Positions 30,279 through 61,797 of a DNA stretch of 64,000 nt are shown here, one piece after another. How positions within the stretch are numbered: position 1 is the first letter of the stretch; each line of letters starts with the position of its first letter. Below the pieces are notes generated by a model. It had not been told where the DNA came from, did not search any database, and saw only the letters and a program-made list of their open reading frames with translations. Both the position numbers and the translations under genes were made by a program. This DNA is from a virus: IMG/VR virus record IMGVR_UViG_3300018080_008375, positions 1 through 64,000 of that record; one strand, written 5' to 3'.

Positions 30279-31124
30279 TTATGCGCGTGTGAATCTCGGG
30301 CAATTGAGACACATTTGTGGAAATTGTTTGGTTTGAAACAATCTTTTTCTAAAGTCCACATATGGCTCTGAATTCCAGATGTCCAGCGTTTTCGAATCGA
30401 AGATGTTTCCGAAAGACTGCTTTGCGTTGTAGTCGAAGCAGCATGGCAGCACATCGCCATTGATGAAGATGATCATTCTAAGCCTTGCTTCGCAGGTTCT
30501 TACCGCTTCGTAGATTTGGTCGGCGTTGCGGCAGACGGGTCTTTGGTATTCCGGAAGCGTCGTTTGCTGTAGGTTGTTTGCGAAGAACAGGGCTTTCGTA
30601 ATTTTGGGCATAATGCCTAGCTCCCGGCAGAGCGATGCGAAGTCCGCAAGCTGGTGCTCGTTGTGTTTGAACACTGTGAACTGCCCGTAGATTTTTGTGG
30701 AGACATTGTACTTCTGTAGCAGTTCGATGTTGGACAGGACTTTATTGTAGTCTCCGGACCGCCTGGCAACTTGGTACATTTCGGGCGTTGTGGCATCAAG
30801 CGGAACCGCCAAGGAATCTAGTTTGGTTTCCATAAGGGCTTTGGGGTCGGGGATCCTGTTGGCATTTGTCGACAGGTGGACTTTTGAGAACTGCTTGGTG
30901 TAGGCAATGATGTCTATGATGTCCGGATTCAGGAGCGGTTCGCCCCATACGAACGGCGCGACAAGCCTGGCGTATGGTCGTATTTTTTCCGCTACTGCAA
31001 CATACCGGTCGAACGGCATGAATGCGTTTTTCCTGGTTATGAGATTTGCGCCCACCGGGCATTCGGGGCAGGACAGGTTACAGACCGACGATGTTTCCAC
31101 ATAGAAGATGAACGGGTTAGCCAT
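30279..31124 (-). CDS. Radical SAM/SPASM enzyme
   Basis: 281 residues. CNLSCPEC at 15-22 is the CX3CX2C site for the SAM-binding [4Fe-4S] cluster. The middle has the TIM-barrel strands (LVAPFVWGEPLLNPD is the GGE-like motif; VHLSTNANRI follows). The C-terminus has the SPASM-type LPCCFDYNAK, FGNIFDSKTLDIWN and MCLNCPRF for auxiliary clusters. Such enzymes modify peptides or sugars. On the minus strand, overlapping the sulfotransferase gene by 8 nt, and lower in GC than its surroundings, so probably acquired as a pair. Confidence 0.88.
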   Translation of the reverse strand: MANPFIFYVETSSVCNLSCPECPVGANLITRKNAFMPFDRYVAVAEKIRPYARLVAPFVWGEPLLNPDIIDIIAYTKQFSKVHLSTNANRIPDPKALMETKLDSLAVPLDATTPEMYQVARRSGDYNKVLSNIELLQKYNVSTKIYGQFTVFKHNEHQLADFASLCRELGIMPKITKALFFANNLQQTTLPEYQRPVCRNADQIYEAVRTCEARLRMIIFINGDVLPCCFDYNAKQSFGNIFDSKTLDIWNSEPYVDFRKRLFQTKQFPQMCLNCPRFTRA

Positions 31125-31938
31125 ATTTTAGGCGCCTCCTTGTTGGCCATGTGATTGTGAGAATCAGATTTTTCTTCTGTTTGCTTAGCCTTTCCCAAGG
31201 CGGAATGGGTCTTTTCACTCGAACGGGTGTTTTGTTGTGTTTTATGTTTACGAGCTTTATTACATCTTCGAATGAAGGAAGTTCCAGGTCCAGGAATTTG
31301 AACAGTTCTTCAAGTCTTGCCCCGCGGATCATTTCTTCGAACTTGTAGATAAATACTTTTTCTTTGGGGATTGAGTCGAGCTGGCGGAGTGCTTCGTCGT
31401 TTACCAGCTTCCAGGACCATGCGCATTTTTGAAGCTTAGTCATTTTGCCCCACTGTTGCTCCGTCGGTTCATTTTCCAGTCGTTCGCAAATGTTTGTTTC
31501 AGCATCTTTTGTTATGACGCTTTTAGGCAGCATCCAGAACGGCACTTTTTTGATGCGCAAGAATATTTGTTCGTCGTATGTTCCGGAATTGAACATGGAC
31601 ACAATTTGTCTCATAGGATTTCTGGTCAGGTAGACAAACTTGGCGTCTGGATAGTGCTTGTGGAGAGCTGAGGCAAAAAATGTAAGGATTCCGTTAATTT
31701 CCCCAAATCTATATCCGTCGTTCAAGGTTTTGCTGATCATATGGCGTCTCTCTTCATACGCCACATTGTCGGATTCCAGACCAGCGTAGACGGAGCGGTA
31801 CTTGTCGAACAGGGAAAACCTGGAATATCCGTCGCGCCGCTCGTGTTGACAGTCTACATCATTTGGAAGGTTCAGGAGTTTTGCTAGAAGATGCGTGCCT
31901 CCATAACCATGTCCGATGCCAAAAAAGATGTTGCTCAT
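31117..31938 (-). CDS. Sulfotransferase-family protein
   Basis: 273 residues. The P-loop-like start GIGHGYGGTHLLAKLLN binds the 5'-phosphosulfate of PAPS, and VYLTRNPMRQIVSMF is the 3'-phosphate-binding motif (R..N..........S). A FIYKFEEM segment and a C-terminal RPIPPWERLSKQ complete the fold. It probably transfers sulfate to a carbohydrate or lipid, for example on the host surface. First gene of the minus-strand pair; its promoter region is shared with the divergent gene at 32036. Confidence 0.82.
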   Translation of the reverse strand: MSNIFFGIGHGYGGTHLLAKLLNLPNDVDCQHERRDGYSRFSLFDKYRSVYAGLESDNVAYEERRHMISKTLNDGYRFGEINGILTFFASALHKHYPDAKFVYLTRNPMRQIVSMFNSGTYDEQIFLRIKKVPFWMLPKSVITKDAETNICERLENEPTEQQWGKMTKLQKCAWSWKLVNDEALRQLDSIPKEKVFIYKFEEMIRGARLEELFKFLDLELPSFEDVIKLVNIKHNKTPVRVKRPIPPWERLSKQKKNLILTITWPTRRRLKYG

Positions 31939-32035: not shown

Positions 32036-32314
32036 ATGAAGCGTGGTGAAATCAGATATCTTGAATGCGCATGCACATCGTCCGAGCATGTGGTTAGGGT
32101 TTGTATAGAGGACGACGAGTTTTATCCTATGTTTATCAGTGTTCAGCTTTCCGGAGGGTCGTTTTTCAGGCGCTTATGGGAGGCCGTAAGGCATTTGTTA
32201 GGATATGATTGCAAATACGGTCACTGGGATGAAGTGCTGCTGAACAGGGACGGCATTCGCCGCCTACAGCTTCTGTGCCGGAAAGCCCTTGAAAATGAGC
32301 ATATAGGCTCTTGA
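32036..32314 (+). CDS. Conserved hypothetical phage protein
   Basis: 92 residues. IRYLECACTSSEHVVRVCIE, YPMFISVQLSGGSFFRRLWE and LGYDCKYGHWDEVLLNRDGI form a small beta-rich domain that I recognise as widespread in phages but without a known role. AAAGGAGG gives a strong start. It opens the plus-strand block after the divergent promoter. Confidence 0.72.
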   Translation: MKRGEIRYLECACTSSEHVVRVCIEDDEFYPMFISVQLSGGSFFRRLWEAVRHLLGYDCKYGHWDEVLLNRDGIRRLQLLCRKALENEHIGS

Positions 32315-32362: not shown

Positions 32363-33013
32363 ATGAAACCAGACATTTCTACAATCAAGAAACTTCGCGC
32401 CCAGACGGGCGCCGGATATGCCGACTGTAGGGCGGCGCTGAGGGATTCCGGCGGCAACATAGAAGCCGCGGAGAAGGCGCTTGAGGCGGTCGGACTGTTG
32501 AAGGTGAAAGAAAAATTCGGACGGGAGGCAAGCGCGGGCGCTGTTCATGCGTATGTACACGCCGGTGACCGGATCGCGGCAATGGTCGAACTGCGGTGCG
32601 AAACCGATTTTGCCGCCAGGACCGAGGAGTTCAAGGTTGCCGCACATGACATCGCCATGCAGGTTGCGGCGATGAAGCACAAATGGGTGACCGAAGGCGA
32701 CATTCCGCTTGAAGCGCTTGTATACGACGAGAAGGACCCTGTTGGAAAGTGCCTTCTGACGCAGCCGTTTATCAAGGACCAGAGCAGGCTGGTCGGCGAC
32801 ATGCTGGCGGACCTGTCCGCGAAGCTGGGAGAGAACTGTCGCATTGAGCGGGCATGCCGATGGGAAGTGGGAGAAGATCCGGATGAGGGGGAGGCTGATC
32901 AGAACGACGGTCCGCAGGGGGACCTGCGCGCCAGAATGAAGGTCTGGGCGATGTTGTTTATAGCTGTTTCACTGTTTGTTTTGGGAGTTGCCGTCGGAGG
33001 TGCGCTATGCTGA
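32363..33013 (+). CDS. tsf: Elongation factor Ts with C-terminal membrane helix
   Basis: EF-Ts homolog, 216 residues. The UBA-like N-terminus (KLRAQTGAGYADCRAALRDS) is followed by the core with CETDFAARTEEF; D82-F83 match the residues that push into EF-Tu to release GDP. PFIKD and KLGENCRIERACRWEVGE complete the family. It lacks the C-terminal module of E. coli Tsf and instead ends, after an acidic linker, in a hydrophobic helix (about 194-214). If made as one chain, this EF-Ts is anchored in the membrane. An internal ATG at 32936 could also make the helix alone. Confidence 0.9.
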   Translation: MKPDISTIKKLRAQTGAGYADCRAALRDSGGNIEAAEKALEAVGLLKVKEKFGREASAGAVHAYVHAGDRIAAMVELRCETDFAARTEEFKVAAHDIAMQVAAMKHKWVTEGDIPLEALVYDEKDPVGKCLLTQPFIKDQSRLVGDMLADLSAKLGENCRIERACRWEVGEDPDEGEADQNDGPQGDLRARMKVWAMLFIAVSLFVLGVAVGGALC

Positions 33014-33402
33014 AGTTTTTCGGAAACATTGTGCTGGCAGCCGTAATAGCGATTGCCGCTTTTGTTGTGTGTGCCGGCTTCCTGGTGGCGTCAGGTATTG
33101 TTTCAGACTGGCTCGATGCCACTCAATCCAGCGCTGCTTTGGCGGACAGGCTTTCCAAAACCGATGCGTCCAGATGGACCAGAGTAAAGAACGGAAAGGG
33201 CTTCTTGCTGCGCAGGCACCACATCATGCTGTGGTGCTCGTTTCCGTATTTCGGGTCGTTGACACCGGAAGATATCGGCATGGCTCCAGCGGAGCGGTGG
33301 AAGCTGTACAAGCTGTGCGGGAGGCTCGACAGGCAGCTCGCGCCCCTGCCCAAGTTCGATCCTGCTGCTAACATGCTTAAAAATATAGACCGAGGCCCCT
33401 GA
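33007..33402 (+). CDS. Membrane protein, single span
   Basis: 131 residues. One membrane helix at about residues 5-31 (NIVLAAVIAIAAFVVCAGFL), then a soluble domain with WTRVKNGKGFLLRRHHIMLW and a basic end. Overlaps the EF-Ts gene by 7 nt, so the two membrane proteins may be made together. Its stop codon lies inside tRNA-Thr(GGT). No family. Confidence 0.6.
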   Translation: MLKFFGNIVLAAVIAIAAFVVCAGFLVASGIVSDWLDATQSSAALADRLSKTDASRWTRVKNGKGFLLRRHHIMLWCSFPYFGSLTPEDIGMAPAERWKLYKLCGRLDRQLAPLPKFDPAANMLKNIDRGP

Positions 33403-33467
33403 GGTCCACATGGCTGGGATGCTGCCTTGGTACGGCAGAGGGACAGATTCGATTCCTGTCGGGGGCT
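33395..33467 (+). tRNA. tRNA-Thr(GGT)
   Basis: Acceptor GCCCCTG/CGGGGGC, discriminator T, anticodon stem CTGCC/GGCAG with loop TTGGTAC; one A-C mismatch in the T-stem. Overlaps the preceding gene by 8 nt, and the next start codon lies 4 nt after its end. Confidence 0.9.
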
Positions 33468-33471
33468 CGTG

Positions 33472-33732
33472 ATGGCTAGGAACAAATTTTACACGCAATG
33501 TCGCCTTCGGCGACCGGTGAAGGGCAGATCAGGGCATTTTCAGGAGATGGTATCGTGGATTCCGTCCGACAAGGCCCAGGTCGGCAAAACGGTGAGACTG
33601 AAGGAGTGGCCGGGCGATACCGAATGGTCCGAAGGGTGGGAAGTTCTTGAATCCTGGAGCAAGCTCGCAGGGGACAGGGCTGAGGCAGCTGCTGTGGATT
33701 ATCTTCACCAGAGGGAGCAGAGTGACGCATGA
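33472..33732 (+). CDS. Small unknown protein
   Basis: 86 residues. ARNKFYTQCRLRRPVKGRSG, then MVSWIPSDKAQVGKTVRLKE, a beta-rich fold with a basic start. Begins just after tRNA-Thr and is coupled by ATGA to the next gene. A conserved phage hypothetical by style; no role known. Confidence 0.6.
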   Translation: MARNKFYTQCRLRRPVKGRSGHFQEMVSWIPSDKAQVGKTVRLKEWPGDTEWSEGWEVLESWSKLAGDRAEAAAVDYLHQREQSDA

Positions 33733-34211
33733 ATACGGTGTTCTATCCGGAAAATCCGGTCGACGGAGAACTCAAGTCGCTGTTTCTCGCCGGACCCACC
33801 GAGAGGGGAAATGCCGGGTCGAAAATTACGGCGTGGAGAAAGTCGGCAATCAGCTATTTGCAGGTTAGCGGCTTTGCCGGAAATGTGTTCGTTCCCGAAT
33901 TCCGACCCGGAGCAAACATGAGAGGGATGTGCCCGGGATCCGCTGACCAGAGGGACTGGGAAGGGGATTTTCTGGAGGCGGCGGACTGTATAGTCTTCTG
34001 GGTGCCTCGTAACCTTGGCAACATGCCAGGCTTCACCACAAATATTGAATGGGGAATGTGGTGCGATTCCGGCAAGGCGGTGTTGGGATATCCGCCGTAC
34101 GCTCCGAAAATGAGCCATATGAGGCATTATGCCGATCAGCTTGGCGTTCCCGTGGCGCATACGCTTGGCGAGACCCTTGATTGTGCTATGCTTGTGATCA
34201 GCGGTCTGTAG
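33729..34211 (+). CDS. Nucleoside 2-deoxyribosyltransferase-like protein 2
   Basis: 160 residues of the Nuc_deoxyrib_tr2-type family: SLFLAGPTERG at the start, WEGDFLEAADCIVFWVPRNL in the middle, and MPGFTTNIEWGMWCDSGKAV carrying the likely catalytic glutamate (E in NIEWG), then GYPPYAPKMSHMR. Such proteins cleave or exchange nucleobases. It may act on nucleotides together with the nucleoside hydrolase at 34973. ATGA overlap with the previous gene. Confidence 0.75.
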   Translation: MNTVFYPENPVDGELKSLFLAGPTERGNAGSKITAWRKSAISYLQVSGFAGNVFVPEFRPGANMRGMCPGSADQRDWEGDFLEAADCIVFWVPRNLGNMPGFTTNIEWGMWCDSGKAVLGYPPYAPKMSHMRHYADQLGVPVAHTLGETLDCAMLVISGL

Positions 34212-34233
34212 AAACAGGAAGGAAGGAAAAAGA

Positions 34234-34605
34234 ATGAATAAAGAATTCGTGATCATGACCGTATTGTCATTTGTGGCGCTGGCTGCATGCGTTACATCTG
34301 CTGTGATCGGTTTTATACAGCCTAGCTATTTGATGGCTGGGCTGGGATGGTGTGTTTCTGCCATGTGGGTTCTGCTGTCTTGGACCGGAGGTCCGCTGCT
34401 GAATCACCTGGTTGAAAGGCAGGAGAGGGTTCTGGCCGAAAGGCTGCGGGAACTATTCACTGACGGAAATCCCGTTTCAATGGACAACGATCCTGTGGAG
34501 ATGGGCGATGTCAATGCGCCTGTCAGAAGGATCGGCATGACGGTCGACGAGGCGGTGGAGAATGCGCACAAGTTGATCAAAAAGAACGGCAAGGACAAGA
34601 ATTAG
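34234..34605 (+). CDS. Two-span membrane protein
   Basis: 123 residues with two membrane helices (about 5-27 and 32-53; hydrophobic segments FVIMTVLSFVALAACVTSAV and YLMAGLGWCVSAMWVLLSW) and a charged cytoplasmic tail with VERQERVLAERLRELF and DEAVENAHKLIKK. AGGAAGGAAAAAG precedes the ATG. Ends 9 nt before the tmRNA. Function unknown. Confidence 0.62.
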   Translation: MNKEFVIMTVLSFVALAACVTSAVIGFIQPSYLMAGLGWCVSAMWVLLSWTGGPLLNHLVERQERVLAERLRELFTDGNPVSMDNDPVEMGDVNAPVRRIGMTVDEAVENAHKLIKKNGKDKN

Positions 34606-34614
34606 CATATTTTT

Positions 34615-34960
34615 GGGGGTGAATTTGGTTTCGACGTGTACGATTGCGGCATAGGCTGCAGGCAGGAGGGTCGCTGGGACCTCCCTAATCCAACAGCGAA
34701 AAGCAAACGCGAACGAACAGTTTGCAATGGCCGCATAGGCCCGCCGGAGATGCTGCCCAGCCTGTCGGCGGCTTCTCCGGTGCGATGATGGCGGGCTAGC
34801 TGACGGAGGATCGTAGCCTCTCCAGAAGCGAAGCAACAGGCTGCGGACATCCCGGACAGAACCTGCCGGTGGGTGCTGCCTGGATGTATAAAACATCGGA
34901 CAAGCCTGTAGACGCCATGCCAAGGCGTGTGCGGACGGGGTTTCGATACCCCCACCTCCA
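34615..34960 (+). ncRNA. ssrA: Transfer-messenger RNA (tmRNA)
   Basis: 346-nt tmRNA. The tRNA-like ends pair (GGGGGTG with CACCTCC, G3-U70 alanine identity, 3' A) and share the hallmark GAATTTGGTTTCGACG near the 5' end and a T-arm GGGG-TTTCGAT-ACCCC near the 3' end. The reading frame starts at GCA 34703 and stops at TAG 34736-34738, giving the tag ANANEQFAMAA, which keeps the A-N-x-N-E...A-x-A-A pattern of bacterial tags. It rescues stalled ribosomes by trans-translation and marks the products for proteases. No SmpB gene is seen in the window. Confidence 0.97.
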
Positions 34961-34972
34961 CAAGTGATTGAT

Positions 34973-35863
34973 ATGACAGAAAAAACAAAAATAGTCTGGG
35001 ACATGGAAACCGGCGATCCGGACGACTATCTGACCCTGCTGCTCCTGTGCGGGCATCCGCGCGTGGACCTGAGGGCAGTCACCATCACGCCCGGAACGCC
35101 GCAGCAGGTCGGGCTCGTTAGGCATGCCCTGAAAGAGTTCAGCCTGGACATTCCTGTCGGGGCATACAACATCGGGCACGAGAAGCAGTGCGTGTCCAAA
35201 TGGCACTACAGGGCGTACGGGAACATTTCGGAATCTCTCGATGCCGAAGAGGGGTGGGTAGTTCTGACGCAGGCGCTGGGTCCGGATGTGACGCTGCTGA
35301 CCGGAGCTCCCCTGAAGAACCTTGGAAAGGCGCTATGGAATGATGCGCTGCCGGTCACCGGCAGGTGGGTAGCCCAGGGCGGCTTTGCCGGCGATGGCGT
35401 GGTTCCTGGCGAGTGGCAGCTGGAGAAGTTCAGGGGCATGGACGCCTGTCCGACCTACAACTTCAACGGCGATCCGAGAAGCGCCTCGGCGGCACTGACA
35501 TGCCAGAACATTAAACAGATTCGCTTGGTGTCGAAGAATGTGTGCCATGGCGTGGCGTACGACCGCAAAGTACACGAGCGTGTGGCGGCGGTCAAGAACA
35601 GGAGCCTGTCCATGAGCCTGATTCACAGGGGCATGGACCTGTATCTAAAGAAGCGCCCGCAGGGCAAGCTGTTCCACGATCCGCTCGCCGCGTGCTGCGC
35701 CATAGACCCGGAGATAGGCAGGTGGTCCGAGCCGGTAGCCATGTTCAGGCGCAAGGGCAAGTGGGGTGCCAGGCTCGTATCCAAAGACAACCCGTATCAG
35801 AAATGCAGGATAATCATGCGTTATGACCATGAGCGGTTTCTGGGCGTTCTGACGGAAGTGTAG
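34973..35863 (+). CDS. Inosine/uridine-type nucleoside hydrolase
   Basis: 296 residues. METGDPDDYLTLLLLCGH matches the metal-binding DxDxxxDD start (with E in the second place), ITPGTPQQ follows, VTLLTGAPLKNLGKAL and GGFAGDGVVPGE are the next family blocks, and FHDPLAACCAI carries the conserved H-D that binds the ribose and metal. It should split nucleosides into base and ribose, or act on a related N-ribosyl bond. ATG 34973 follows the tmRNA by 12 nt; a GTG at 34964 is an alternative. Confidence 0.82.
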   Translation: MTEKTKIVWDMETGDPDDYLTLLLLCGHPRVDLRAVTITPGTPQQVGLVRHALKEFSLDIPVGAYNIGHEKQCVSKWHYRAYGNISESLDAEEGWVVLTQALGPDVTLLTGAPLKNLGKALWNDALPVTGRWVAQGGFAGDGVVPGEWQLEKFRGMDACPTYNFNGDPRSASAALTCQNIKQIRLVSKNVCHGVAYDRKVHERVAAVKNRSLSMSLIHRGMDLYLKKRPQGKLFHDPLAACCAIDPEIGRWSEPVAMFRRKGKWGARLVSKDNPYQKCRIIMRYDHERFLGVLTEV

Positions 35864-35875
35864 AAAGGAAAGCGA

Positions 35876-36439
35876 ATGAAGTATATGCTTGCAGTGGACC
35901 TGGAGACTACCGGGCTGAATCCGAGGCATCATGAGATCACGCAGATAGGCGCGATCCTGCTGGACAGGGAGTTGAAGGAACTCGGCGAGTTCGAGACGCT
36001 TGTTAAGATCGACTATCCGGAGCGCGGGCTTGAGGGCGGCTTTGATGTGTTCAAATACACCGGTATTACGCAGGACAGTCTCAAAGACGCTCCGACGCTG
36101 AAGAAGTCCCTGCGCGCCATGGAGGTGTTCGTTAGGTCCAAGATCGGCGGGTTTAGCCTGGAAAGCGTGGCGGTGTTCGGCCAGAACCCGCGCTTCGATG
36201 TCGGCTTCCTGGAGGAGGCGTACAGGAGCCTCGGATGGAAGTTTCCGTTCGATTTCCATGTCATCGGCCTTGAGAGTGCGTATGTGTTCTATAGCCTCAA
36301 GAAGAACGGAACGCTGCCGGTCGGTCTCCGCCTGAAGGACATCTGTAAGAAGGCGGGAATCAAGAATGCGCAGGAGCACAATGCCATAGCAGACATTCGT
36401 GCTACAGTCGATTCGCTCAGGGCGCTTTTGGAAAAGTAG
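35876..36439 (+). CDS. DnaQ-like 3'-5' exonuclease
   Basis: 187 residues with all DEDDh motifs: VDLETTG (Exo I), FGQNPRFDVGFL (Exo II), and QEHNAIADIRAT (Exo III, histidine and aspartate). Length and sequence resemble oligoribonuclease/RNase T-like or stand-alone epsilon-like exonucleases. It could degrade RNA ends, for example trim tRNAs, or proofread DNA. AAAGGAAAGCG precedes the ATG. Confidence 0.88.
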   Translation: MKYMLAVDLETTGLNPRHHEITQIGAILLDRELKELGEFETLVKIDYPERGLEGGFDVFKYTGITQDSLKDAPTLKKSLRAMEVFVRSKIGGFSLESVAVFGQNPRFDVGFLEEAYRSLGWKFPFDFHVIGLESAYVFYSLKKNGTLPVGLRLKDICKKAGIKNAQEHNAIADIRATVDSLRALLEK

Positions 36440-36474
36440 GGTGCTGAAATTGGGGTGATGAAAGGAGTTGTTCC

Positions 36475-36900
36475 ATGGAAGTTTTTTTGCTTATCGTTGT
36501 CGTAGCGATTGCTTTGCTGCTGATGTTTCTGCCGCATTCCGGCAAGAAGAAGTGGGCCGAGTCGCATAGGAGGGGGTTGGAGGAACAATATGCTCCCTGG
36601 TCGGCACCACAGGAAGAAAAGGAGCCGGAGGACCTACGGGCAGACTCCGATTTGGAGCCGTCAGAAGGTTTCTGTAACGGTACGCGCGTCGTCGCGCAGG
36701 CAGTGTTTCGAGTTGCCAAGACGACCCGTGGATGGGCTTTGTTCGACGGAAAGAAGACTATCCTCACGCGCAAGAAGAAGCGTGATGCCGTGGCTGAGGC
36801 AAGAAGCGTTGCCAATGCGCGTCAACCGTCACGGCTGGAGATCTACAAGGCGGACGGAGAGTGCCAGGTGTCGCACGAATACGGAAAGAGCAAGGGGTAG
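36475..36900 (+). CDS. Membrane-anchored DUF2188-like protein
   Basis: 141 residues. N-terminal membrane helix (VFLLIVVVAIALLLMFLPHS), then a charged linker and a small domain VAKTTRGWALFDGKKTILTR, KKKRDAVAEARSVANARQPS, LEIYKADGECQ with a final YG. That domain matches the DUF2188 pattern of unknown role. AAAGGAG lies 8 nt before the start. Confidence 0.65.
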   Translation: MEVFLLIVVVAIALLLMFLPHSGKKKWAESHRRGLEEQYAPWSAPQEEKEPEDLRADSDLEPSEGFCNGTRVVAQAVFRVAKTTRGWALFDGKKTILTRKKKRDAVAEARSVANARQPSRLEIYKADGECQVSHEYGKSKG

Positions 36901-58341: not shown

Positions 58342-58699
58342 CGCCAAATGTCCGGATTGCTGGAAAAGCGCGGTCGTCACCAGCACGGTTGACCGCCTGC
58401 AGAAGCAGCTCAAGCTTCTGGCGGACAGGGGATACGGCGACCGCGACCGCCTGTTCCGCAAAATGGTCGAGGAGTTCGGAGAATACGCGGAGGCAATAGA
58501 GTACTACAACGGATCCACCAGGAAAAAGAAGAAGCTAGGGGGCCTGGATCCGGTGGCGAAGCTGCGCGAGGAGGTGGCGGACATGCTGATGATCACCTTG
58601 GCGCTCGCCAAGGTTGAGGGCATGGACATCGTCAGGGCGTGCGACATGGCGGCGTCAAAGCTGGAGCAGCGGACGAAGGAGCACAATGAGCGCAAGTAG
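58334..58699 (+). CDS. MazG-like NTP pyrophosphohydrolase
   Basis: 121 residues. LFRKMVEEFGEYAEAIEYYN and KLREEVADMLMITLALAKVE (EExx...ExxD) match MazG, an all-helical enzyme that hydrolyses NTPs to NMPs, used by phages to control nucleotide or alarmone levels. A short zinc-like CPDC start precedes it. Overlaps the YacG-like gene. Confidence 0.85.
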   Translation: MSDAKCPDCWKSAVVTSTVDRLQKQLKLLADRGYGDRDRLFRKMVEEFGEYAEAIEYYNGSTRKKKKLGGLDPVAKLREEVADMLMITLALAKVEGMDIVRACDMAASKLEQRTKEHNERK

Positions 58700-59918
58700 C
58701 AAGAGGTTCGTCAGCCTGTTTTCGGGAGCCGGAGGCCTGGACCTGGGCTTCATGGCCGAGGGGTGGTCCCCGGTGATGATGGTTGACAACTGGGATCCTG
58801 CGGTGCGGACGCTGGAGGCCAACCATTCGAAGGCGCTCGTGGTGAACTGGGACCTGGCGACTGTGTCTGGGAGCCTGATCAAGGACGCCGCGGAGAGCCA
58901 GGGGGTCGGGTTTTACGAGGTCGATTGCGTAATGGGCGGGCCGCCGTGCCAGCCATTCTCCCGCCTCAACCAGAACCAGCTGTTCGATGGCGGGGAAAAC
59001 ACGGAAACGAACATGAACGATCCGAGGCGCAGCCTGTTCATGTCTTTCATCAGGATTGTCAGGCTGATCAAGCCGAAGTTCGTCGTGATGGAGAATGTGT
59101 TTGACCTCGCCAACCGAAGGCTGGGAGGAAGCGGGCCGGAGAAGGACCGCATGATCGTCGGAGTGATAGCCGAGCAGTTCGAAAACGCCGGATACAATGT
59201 CTCGTTCGGGGTTCTCATAGCCGCGCAGTACGACGTTCCCCAAATGCGCAAGAGGCTGGTTTTCATCGGTGCGCGCAAGAACCTTGGAGTGACGCCGTCA
59301 ATGCCGGAACCTGTGACGCTAAGGACATCGGTGGCGACGGAGTTTTCCAGAATACAGCCACATCACCCGAATCAGGACAGAAAAAAGCATACGAAAACAT
59401 GGGTTGAGCGGGCGCGGCATGTTCCGAAAGGCGGGTACTACAATGATCTGCCGCTTGAGCACAAGGTACTGAAGCCGGTCGACCTGGATTTTGTCGGCTC
59501 CTATGACGGTCAGGCGCGGCACTACGCTATCAGTCGCAAAGACGGGTCATGGGACGAGTTCAAGTGGGACCTCCGCAGGGAGATTGCCGTGTTCTCCGGC
59601 AGGTACGAGGGGTGGGAGCTGGGCATGGCGCAGCTTGAGTGCGACACGGATGGATGCCAGATATACCGGGTGATGCCGCGCATGGGGACGTACCTGCGGC
59701 GCATCAGGTGGGGTATTTCCCATACGGTCACGCGCAATCCCCTGATCCACCCCGACGAGCATCGGGAGATCACCGTGCGGGAGAAGGCAGCCATACAGAC
59801 GTTTCCACCTGAATACGAGTTCGTTGGCAAGCTCCAGGACCAGCATGTCCTGGTGGGAAATGCGGTTCCAGTCAACCTCGGGCGTTCGATTGCCAGGCAC
59901 GTGGGAGGGATGCTCTGA
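58686..59918 (+). CDS. DNA (cytosine-5-)-methyltransferase 1
   Basis: 410 residues. LFSGAGGLDLG (motif I), GGPPCQPFS with catalytic C88 (motif IV), VVMENVFDL (motif VI), VPQMRKRLVFIG (motif VIII) and VGNAVPVNLG (motif X) define a C5 methyltransferase. The variable target-recognition part lies between. It modifies phage DNA, either as part of a restriction-modification system or to evade host nucleases. Overlaps MazG-like. Confidence 0.93.
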   Translation: MSASSKRFVSLFSGAGGLDLGFMAEGWSPVMMVDNWDPAVRTLEANHSKALVVNWDLATVSGSLIKDAAESQGVGFYEVDCVMGGPPCQPFSRLNQNQLFDGGENTETNMNDPRRSLFMSFIRIVRLIKPKFVVMENVFDLANRRLGGSGPEKDRMIVGVIAEQFENAGYNVSFGVLIAAQYDVPQMRKRLVFIGARKNLGVTPSMPEPVTLRTSVATEFSRIQPHHPNQDRKKHTKTWVERARHVPKGGYYNDLPLEHKVLKPVDLDFVGSYDGQARHYAISRKDGSWDEFKWDLRREIAVFSGRYEGWELGMAQLECDTDGCQIYRVMPRMGTYLRRIRWGISHTVTRNPLIHPDEHREITVREKAAIQTFPPEYEFVGKLQDQHVLVGNAVPVNLGRSIARHVGGML

Positions 59919-60814
59919 TGTATGAAACGACAAACCTTCTTGTGCGGCTGTGTAACATAGCGGATGAGGGTCGCAGGATGCCGTCGGCCAACATGTCACT
60001 TCCCCTATTCAGAAGGGGAGAGAGTCTTGAAAAAGAACTGGGGAGATTGTCCGTCCGCCCGGAGCGTCCGGACTACGATCCGGTTGCCTACATATCCGAA
60101 AACTCCAGTCCAATAGACCTGATATGCTCCGGATCAGACGCGGAGGAGATGAAGGCTCTGCGTGGCAGCCCGAGAATGATAGCGTGGAACAGCAGCCATA
60201 TCGTCCCGATGGTTGGTCTGGACTACCCAAGCCTTACGAAGCGTGCGGCGGAGTCGTGCTCGGAATGGCCAAAGCCGTTTCTGATAAACTCTTTGGAAGG
60301 CGGGGTTCTGTGGTCCGTGTACGGGGAGACGTTTCTGGCCGCCTCCAGGTCGGACGCAGTGCCGGTGTCGATGGTGAAGAGGGCGCTGGAGAAGCTCATC
60401 AGGCAGCATGGACTGGAGGCTATCAGGCGCGAGATTGTTTCGAAATGCGGTGCTGGCGCATGGGAGTCCTACAGGAAAGACATTTTCCTGCTGCCGAAAA
60501 AGAATACCCTCGGGGAGCTTGCGCGCTTTTCCGCGGGCGGCAGCACCAGGGTGAGGATGCGCGCCATGACCGAGGAAGAGTCCATGTCCAGCAGGTTTGC
60601 CGGCAAGTTTAAAAAGATGTTCGGCATGAAGGGCGGATGGCTGGCATGCGCAATGGTTCCGGAAAGGATATATTCCATGTATCCGCAGAAGGACAAGGAG
60701 CGCCTAGTTTCCTATATCGACCGCAGGGGTGTGCGATTCAGGTGGTGTCGCATCAGGGGAAAGATACATGCGGCCATCGCCGTTTTGGGGAGTTGTAAAG
60801 GAGAGTGCGCATGA
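59918..60814 (+). CDS. Unknown protein between the two methyltransferases
   Basis: 298 residues. Helical and basic; no PD-(D/E)XK, HNH or GIY-YIG motif is clear, but its place between two methyltransferases and one base overlap with the first (TGATG) suggests it belongs to the system, perhaps a restriction enzyme or specificity factor. YRKDIFLLPKKN and GGWLACAMVPERIYSM are notable blocks. Function unknown. Confidence 0.6.
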   Translation: MYETTNLLVRLCNIADEGRRMPSANMSLPLFRRGESLEKELGRLSVRPERPDYDPVAYISENSSPIDLICSGSDAEEMKALRGSPRMIAWNSSHIVPMVGLDYPSLTKRAAESCSEWPKPFLINSLEGGVLWSVYGETFLAASRSDAVPVSMVKRALEKLIRQHGLEAIRREIVSKCGAGAWESYRKDIFLLPKKNTLGELARFSAGGSTRVRMRAMTEEESMSSRFAGKFKKMFGMKGGWLACAMVPERIYSMYPQKDKERLVSYIDRRGVRFRWCRIRGKIHAAIAVLGSCKGECA

Positions 60815-61796
60815 GGATAGTTTCCTTGTTTTCCGGATGCGGCGGTCTGGATTTGGGATTCAAGCGCGCCGGCTTCAAGATCGTCTGGGCAAACGAGTTC
60901 GACAGGTCGATCATACCCACCTTCAGGAAGCAGTTTTCGAAAACGGAACTCGATTCCAGGAGCATATCGGATATAGATATTTCCGACATTCCCGATGCTG
61001 ACGGGATAGTCGGAGGTCCTCCATGCCAGTCCTGGAGCGAGTTCGGGTCAAAGCGCGGCATCGACGACGATAGGGGAAAGCTGTTCCTGAGGTATGTAGA
61101 TATCATAGAAGAGAAGAGACCGAAATTTTTCCTGGCGGAGAACGTTTCCGGAATACTTGCCAAGAGGCATTACGATGCGCTGGACAGGATACTCGCCAGC
61201 CTGTCCTCGGAATACGAGGTTCGGATGGAACTTCTGAACGCCGCGGATTTCGGCGTGCCGCAGGACAGGGAGCGCGTCATTTTCATCGGATACAGGCGCG
61301 ACCTGAAAAGGGCGTTCGACTTCTCCGGAGTCAGGAGGACCAAGAGGACGACCCTGCGCGACGCCATCTGGGACCTGCGCAAGTCGGCTGTGCCGGCTGC
61401 CGTTGTCGGCGGGCGGAGGAATCGCGCAAACGCGTCGTTGGCGGTTCCCAATCACGAATACTTCAAGGGCACGTACTCGCCGCACTACATGTCGCGCAAC
61501 CGTGTGCGCGGATGGGACGAGCGCTCCTTCACGATCCAAGCGGGGGCGCGCCACGCCCCTATGCATCCGCAGGCCCCAAAGATGGTCAGCGTCGGAAAGG
61601 ACAAGTTTGCGTTCGACGGCGACGAATCGCTGTACCGCAGGCTTTCCGTGAGGGAATGCGCCAGGGTGCAGACGTTTCCGGACAGTTTTGTGTTTGTTTA
61701 CGATGATGTCGCATGCGGGTACAAGATGGTTGGGAATGCCGTCCCAGTTAGGATGGCCAAGGCTCTTGCGGGGGCGATAAAGAGGGATTTTTCCTG

Positions 61797-61797
<1 letters not shown>
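60811..61797 (+). CDS. DNA (cytosine-5-)-methyltransferase 2
   Basis: 328 residues. IVSLFSGCGGLDLGF (motif I), GGPPCQSWSEFG with C72 (motif IV), FFLAENVSGI (motif VI), VPQDRERVIFIG (motif VIII) and VGNAVPVRMA (motif X). A second enzyme distinct from the first. ATGA with the gene before, TGATG with the putative restriction gene after it, so co-expressed. Confidence 0.93.

What the first reader, a model, noticed from the sequence alone, without database searches (positions are those of the whole stretch)
32363..33013. EF-Ts fused to a C-terminal membrane helix
Seen: a complete EF-Ts core including the TDF motif, then an acidic linker and about 21 hydrophobic residues in the same frame, followed by another membrane protein gene that overlaps it. 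Known: EF-Ts works in the cytoplasm on EF-Tu. Inference: the phage may bring EF-Tu, or phage translation, to the membrane.
Basis: partly seen in the sequence, partly recalled or inferred. Interest (0 to 1): 0.72.

Follow-up and report, generated by a model that had tools for sequence, protein, structure and literature searches.

The report
Phage elongation factor with membrane tail
A large bacterial virus carries its own copy of EF-Ts, a helper of protein synthesis, and this copy ends in a stretch that should pin it to the cell membrane; none of 55 comparable viral or 25 bacterial copies examined has that, but a related virus has a different odd end at the same spot, so the anchor may be an accident rather than a new trick.

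Summary
One open frame (32363-33013, 216 aa) encodes an EF-Ts core (residues 1-171) that matches Thermus EF-Ts by sequence (E 5e-31) and by predicted fold (Z 19.0, 1.6 A over 122 residues). An acidic linker follows, then R-x-R-x-K, then 23 residues without a charge ending at the stop: the layout of a C-tail anchor with its N-terminus inside. No in-frame stop lies between core and tail, so ribosomes starting at 32363 must make the fusion; a restart at ATG 32936 could only add a second peptide. Hydrophobic ends this strong occur in 0.2% of non-coding frames of the contig. Of 55 stop-terminated EF-Ts genes from IMG/VR viral contigs and 25 bacterial ones, none has such a tail. The syntenic relative phage (340 kb contig, 46% identical EF-Ts) instead carries a C-terminal scrap of dephospho-CoA kinase at the same point (E 4e-7). 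The 3' end of this gene is therefore a place where foreign pieces get fused, which weakens but does not remove the idea of selected membrane anchoring. Phage EF-Ts itself is known; the tail-anchored form is a new variant. Membrane-localised nucleotide exchange on host EF-Tu is the leading reading; it is untested.

The parts
32363..33013 (+). phage EF-Ts gene, 216 aa, with C-terminal membrane tail
32363..32491 (+). N-terminal UBA-like (TS-N) three-helix domain, residues 1-43; R12 of the LRxxTGAG motif kept
   Evidence: weak sequence hits EF-Ts_N E 0.002 and UBA E 0.04, both under the curated cut-offs; helices 5-15, 19-28, 33-42 in the model; superposes on UBA domains, 40 residues at about 0.8 A
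32510..32875 (+). EF-Ts core, residues 50-171, Thermus-type single core without the 122-154 hairpin region
   Evidence: VIA-align Z 19.0, rmsd 1.6 A, 122 residues, to 1aip_H residues 49-196
32603..32611 (+). TDF motif (T81-D82-F83), the EF-Tu nucleotide-exchange motif; invariant in the 26-sequence viral alignment
32873..32923 (+). acidic linker, residues 171-187, predicted disordered
   Evidence: pLDDT about 55 for residues 171-190
32927..33010 (+). R-x-R-x-K then 23-residue uncharged hydrophobic segment (residues 189-216): predicted C-tail anchor, N-in/C-out
   Evidence: hydropathy 2.53; helix 186-212 in the model, pLDDT about 55-71
32936..32938 (+). in-frame internal ATG (M192): possible but poorly spaced second start
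33007..33402 (+). overlapping downstream gene, 131 aa, N-terminal membrane helix (residues 8-26), no family above threshold
32036..32314 (+). upstream gene of unknown function (PHROG 23381); also directly upstream of EF-Ts in the syntenic relative

Best explanation
The gene makes a phage EF-Ts that keeps the EF-Tu-facing parts (N-terminal domain, TDF loop, the conserved His, single core) and ends, after a flexible acidic linker, in a C-tail anchor. Shown by sequence and model: the intact core, the continuous frame, the strongly hydrophobic end with basic residues on its N-terminal side. Inferred: the tail inserts post-translationally into the host inner membrane with the EF-Ts domain in the cytoplasm, where it exchanges GDP for GTP on host EF-Tu, so that EF-Tu recycling is enriched beside membrane-bound ribosomes or a membrane-side site of phage protein synthesis. 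The anchor arose by an in-frame fusion at the 3' end of an ordinary phage EF-Ts gene in this lineage.
For: EF-Ts identity: Pfam 4e-15, Thermus EF-Ts 5e-31, fold Z 19.0 at 1.6 A; TDF and Y64/H66 invariant in 26 viral EF-Ts. Tail: hydropathy 2.53 over the last 19 residues, apparent insertion free energy about -1.5 on a simplified biological scale; helix 186-212 after a low-confidence linker; basic residues only on the N-terminal side. Beyond chance: 0.18% of non-gene frames. Coding in this frame over the whole tail. EF-Tu has to come from the host: no GTP_EFTU match in this contig or three related ones (all may be incomplete). Precedent for tail anchors acting on translation: E. coli YqjD, ElaB and YgaM bring ribosomes to the inner membrane (PMC10746276; PMC5525287). 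The window carries 31 tRNA genes and a tmRNA, so the phage invests in translation.
Against: One example only: none of 55 stop-terminated viral EF-Ts genes has the tail, including the closest (L015, L041, L029). The syntenic relative has a different fused scrap at the same point, which is what accidental fusion would look like. The membrane stretch itself has a near-neutral codon score. Tail helix confidence is modest, about 55-71. No experiment on location or activity. Close relatives may have been withheld by the search tools, so conservation of the tail could not be tested.
Confidence: 0.5

Rival explanations
1. Accidental accretion. The 3' end of EF-Ts in this phage family is a junction where insertions fuse foreign ends to a tolerant protein. 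Here it caught a membrane segment, in the sister phage a piece of dephospho-CoA kinase. EF-Ts works as usual and the tail has no selected role, even if it makes the protein stick to membranes.
For: Sister phage (L029/L075, syntenic over many genes) has a 45-aa EF-Ts extension matching the C-terminus of dephospho-CoA kinase 2if2, E 4e-7 (also NCBIfam E 0.03). Everything between EF-Ts and the next shared gene (exonuclease, 62% identical) differs between the two. All other short viral EF-Ts end at or a few residues after the core.
Against: The tail has the ordered layout of a tail anchor (linker, basic patch, uncharged helix, stop) and is not a random read-through (0.18%). A free hydrophobic end on an abundant cytosolic protein would usually be costly (inference).
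Confidence: 0.3
2. Sink for EF-Tu: the anchored EF-Ts holds host EF-Tu at the membrane, to slow host translation or to shield EF-Tu from host defences that act on it, rather than to speed recycling.
For: EF-Ts forms a tight complex with nucleotide-free EF-Tu, and EF-Tu is a target of Lit protease and Doc kinase (established knowledge, not tested here). The precedent YqjD brings ribosomes to the membrane and inhibits growth when overproduced.
Against: The phage carries 31 tRNA genes and a tmRNA and would itself suffer from loss of EF-Tu; nothing in the sequence points to inhibition.
Confidence: 0.1
3. Nested gene: ATG 32936 starts a separate 25-residue membrane peptide, coupled to the overlapping membrane gene at 33007, and the fusion is a by-product of the shared frame.
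For: AGGGGGA upstream pairs with the anti-Shine-Dalgarno at -8.9 kcal/mol, stronger than 76% of predicted gene starts.
Against: Spacing of 13 is rare: 6 of 105 strong starts in the contig are at 13 or more. The frame is the same and no stop precedes it, so the fusion would be made anyway.
Confidence: 0.06
4. Assembly or sequencing error that removed a stop or shifted the frame.
For: Single metagenomic contig; no second copy found.
Against: The tail has the codon bias of this frame overall, the stop overlaps the next gene's start in a normal coupling arrangement with a strong Shine-Dalgarno site, and hydrophobic tails are rare by chance.
Confidence: 0.04

Closest known systems
Thermus thermophilus EF-Ts (PDB 1aip, 1tfe)
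   Same: single-core architecture, N-terminal domain, TDF motif; E 5e-31 and Z 19.0 at 1.6 A over 122 residues
   Different: Thermus has a further region 122-154 and ends at 196, which aligns to residue 171 here; no membrane tail
EF-Ts of huge phages (Al-Shayeb et al. 2020, PMC7162821) and the IMG/VR set found here
   Same: phage-encoded EF-Ts in large phages; 41-46% identity to the closest
   Different: none of 55 with their own stop codon has a C-terminal membrane segment
Caulobacter phage Colossus gp247 (PMC3556154)
   Same: phage EF-Ts reduced in size
   Different: 98 aa, only subdomain N, no tail mentioned
[quoted passage not shown]
   Same: cytoplasmic domain acting on translation, held by a C-tail anchor
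   Different: YqjD and ElaB are DUF883 proteins, not elongation factors; compared by layout only, no sequence comparison run
Patescibacteria short EF-Ts (such as L098-L107, about 150-166 aa)
   Same: lack the same hairpin region as the window protein
   Different: end at the core; none of 25 bacterial EF-Ts examined has a membrane tail

Membership tests
EF-Ts (Pfam PF00889) | score above the family's curated cut-off | tested here: met
   56.4 bits against 27
EF-Ts (Pfam PF00889) | EF-Ts core fold | tested here: met
   Z 19.0, rmsd 1.6 A over 122 residues to Thermus EF-Ts; model pLDDT above 90 in most of the core
EF-Ts (Pfam PF00889) | TDF motif and N-terminal LRxxTGAG domain | tested here: met
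   T81-D82-F83; LRAQTGAG at residues 11-18
EF-Ts (Pfam PF00889) | binds EF-Tu and exchanges its nucleotide | not testable with these tools
   needs biochemistry
NCBIfam TIGR00116 (tsf equivalog) | score above the equivalog cut-off | tested here: not met
   93.0 bits against 104.05; the model is 293 positions and this protein is the short form. The sister phage's EF-Ts also falls short (96.8), L015 passes (115.6). Filed as an EF-Ts family member, not as this equivalog
C-tail anchored membrane proteins | single hydrophobic helix at the very C-terminus and none elsewhere | tested here: met
   only segment above 1.6 hydropathy is 198-216; no signal-like N-terminus
C-tail anchored membrane proteins | inserted in the membrane, N-terminus in the cytoplasm | not testable with these tools
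   R189, R191, K193 precede the helix and no charge follows it, which predicts this orientation
YqjD/ElaB (DUF883) | DUF883 domain | tested here: not met
   no DUF883 match among Pfam families at E up to 1; resemblance is of layout only

The most novel reading that the evidence does not exclude
A virus has turned a soluble translation factor into a membrane-resident one, so that EF-Tu recharging happens at the inner membrane, giving a localised elongation cycle for phage membrane-protein synthesis or for a membrane-side replication site.
Probability: 0.35. Interest if true: 0.8.

Novelty: new variant of a known kind. Interest (0 to 1): 0.5.

Why it matters
EF-Ts is treated as a freely diffusing factor. 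A tail-anchored version would be a natural test of whether the place of EF-Tu recycling matters, and would show a phage controlling where, not only how fast, translation runs. Even if the tail is accidental, the pair of sister phages with different pieces fused to the same gene shows how translation factors in large phages acquire new domains.

Tried and rejected
Searching viral contigs with the protein alone and with a two-sequence alignment found no relative; a motif DNA pattern worked instead. Apart from the uncultured huge phage LR756511, the hits in the phage collection were dismissed: four of the five read (OQ572403, MT835604, OR846595, MT838987) carry the bacterial rpsB-tsf arrangement and the fifth, a 4.6 kb fragment, looks bacterial too; the annotated Acinetobacter 'phage' record likewise has rpsB next to tsf, and the second Acinetobacter record and the Salmonella record were not read. 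Genome contigs gave only a Patescibacteria EF-Ts at 36%. Scans with the upstream gene and the exonuclease found no further EF-Ts at this locus. The tail alone matches no solved structure by sequence. No direct DNA repeat links the tail to the next gene's membrane segment. Frame-shifted homology between this tail and the sister's tail was looked for and not found. Literature searches listed no paper on a membrane-anchored EF-Ts, judged from titles and abstracts in an open-licence library only. Lipoprotein-type cleavage at the final Cys was considered and set aside: the -1 residue is Leu and nothing follows the Cys.

Full report
WHERE IT LIES. The window is the first 64 kb of a 99,821-base IMG/VR virus record. 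A home-made gene caller gave 139 genes, nearly all on the plus strand. The window holds 31 tRNA genes and a tmRNA, gyrase B, two cytosine methylases, RNase HII and an ADP-ribosylglycohydrolase. It looks like a piece of a large phage: many of its genes run in the same order as in a 340-kb virus contig (L075).

THE OBSERVATION. The frame 32363-33013 is open from ATG to TGA and gives 216 residues. Pfam EF_TS scores 56.4 bits against a cut-off of 27. The best solved relative is Thermus EF-Ts, E 5e-31, matched in two blocks: residues 5-122 to 4-121 and residues 130-170 to 155-195 of a 196-residue chain. So this is the short single-core type, it lacks about 33 residues of a region present in Thermus, and its core ends at residue 171. 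AlphaFold2 on a 26-sequence alignment gives most of the core at pLDDT above 90, a low-confidence linker and a helix 186-212. The core superposes on Thermus EF-Ts with Z 19.0 and 1.6 A over 122 residues, 50-171.

THE TAIL. Residues 171-187 carry 8 acidic residues; R189, R191 and K193 follow; 194-216 hold no charge and end at the stop. Hydropathy over the last 19 residues is 2.53. Only two other predicted genes of 139 end so hydrophobically, one a 51-residue protein, the other a protein with several hydrophobic segments. Non-gene frames of the same contig do this in 0.18% of cases. Codon scores favour the annotated frame through the tail as a whole, but the last 25 codons taken alone are nearly neutral.

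COULD THE HELIX BE A SEPARATE PEPTIDE? ATG 32936 is residue 192 of the same frame. It has a strong Shine-Dalgarno match, stronger than 76% of predicted starts, but at spacing 13; only 6 of 105 strong starts of this contig lie at 13 or more. In any case no stop lies between 32363 and 33011, so the fusion is made by every ribosome that starts at the first ATG and runs to the stop. The next gene begins at 33007 inside the EF-Ts stop (ATGcTGA) with a strong site GGAGGT; the last codons of the tail thus also serve as its likely ribosome-binding site.

RELATIVES. A degenerate DNA pattern for E-x-x-C-x-T-D-F-[VA]-A-x4-F found 58 stretches in viral contigs, one of them not EF-Ts (L019); a second pattern added three. 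Of the 60 EF-Ts frames 55 have their own stop, and none has a C-terminal membrane segment; many come from contigs over 200 kb. The closest are L015 and L041 (41% identity) and L029 (46%). Twenty-five EF-Ts from Patescibacteria have no such tail either.

THE TELLING COMPARISON. L029 lies in the syntenic 340-kb contig: the gene before EF-Ts is shared (42%), and so are the exonuclease after it (62%) and a run of later genes. Its EF-Ts also has an extension of about 45 residues, but that extension is a C-terminal scrap of dephospho-CoA kinase (2if2, E 4e-7). Between EF-Ts and the exonuclease the two phages share nothing detectable. So in this lineage the 3' end of EF-Ts is a junction at which different sequences have been fused. 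This is the main reason for not scoring the finding higher.

MECHANISM. Most likely (0.5) the protein is a working EF-Ts held at the inner membrane by a C-tail anchor, exchanging nucleotide on host EF-Tu there; no EF-Tu gene was found in this contig or three related ones. Tail-anchored proteins that bring ribosomes to the inner membrane are known in E. coli (YqjD, ElaB, YgaM; PMC10746276), so a membrane-side role in translation has precedent, but these are not elongation factors. The main rival (0.3) is accretion without a selected role. Smaller rivals are an EF-Tu sink (0.1), a nested peptide (0.06) and an assembly error (0.04).

WHAT IS KNOWN. Phage EF-Ts has been reported: elongation factors G, Tu and Ts in huge phages (PMC7162821) and a 98-residue EF-Ts in phage Colossus (PMC3556154). 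No membrane-anchored EF-Ts turned up in the papers listed by five searches, in a library limited to open licences and judged mainly from titles and abstracts. Verdict: a real feature, a new variant of a known kind, with an untested function.

LIMITS. Five of the viral EF-Ts frames run off their contig. The bacterial comparison covers 25 sequences from one phylum. EF-Ts contact residues (R12, TDF, the conserved His) are recalled from the literature on E. coli EF-Ts and were checked here only for presence. Membrane prediction rests on hydropathy and a simplified insertion scale, not on a dedicated topology program.

Noticed in passing
L029:2522-3187 (also L075): EF-Ts of a related 340-kb phage carries a C-terminal fragment of dephospho-CoA kinase (2if2, E 4e-7).
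   Followed up: yes
34615-34963: tmRNA gene with tag peptide ANEQFAMAA, 107.9 bits in Rfam, between a small membrane protein gene and a nucleoside hydrolase gene.
   Followed up: partly
30279-31938, minus strand: A radical SAM/SPASM gene and a sulfotransferase gene sit on the minus strand inside an almost wholly plus-strand array, just upstream of the EF-Ts region.
   Followed up: no
32363-36900: Four neighbouring genes (EF-Ts, 33007, 34234, 36475) have a predicted membrane helix, a higher share than in the rest of the contig.
   Followed up: no
60 loci among L012-L069 and L077-L079: EF-Ts is common in large viral contigs and comes in two forms: a short single-core form of about 150-220 aa and a full two-subdomain form of about 300 aa.
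   Followed up: partly
L073:4878-5288: Very small EF-Ts-like frame in a 298-kb viral contig, similar in size to Colossus gp247.
   Followed up: no
L006, L007, L008, L010, L011: Records labelled as phages (OQ572403, MT835604, OR846595, MT838987, CAKLQF020000002) hold the bacterial rpsB-tsf region and look like host chromosome.
   Followed up: partly
58686-59918, 60811-61797 and contig 74951-76132: Two C5-cytosine methylase genes (Pfam) in the window, and a third predicted gene in the contig that hits the same methylase-like regions of related contigs.
   Followed up: no
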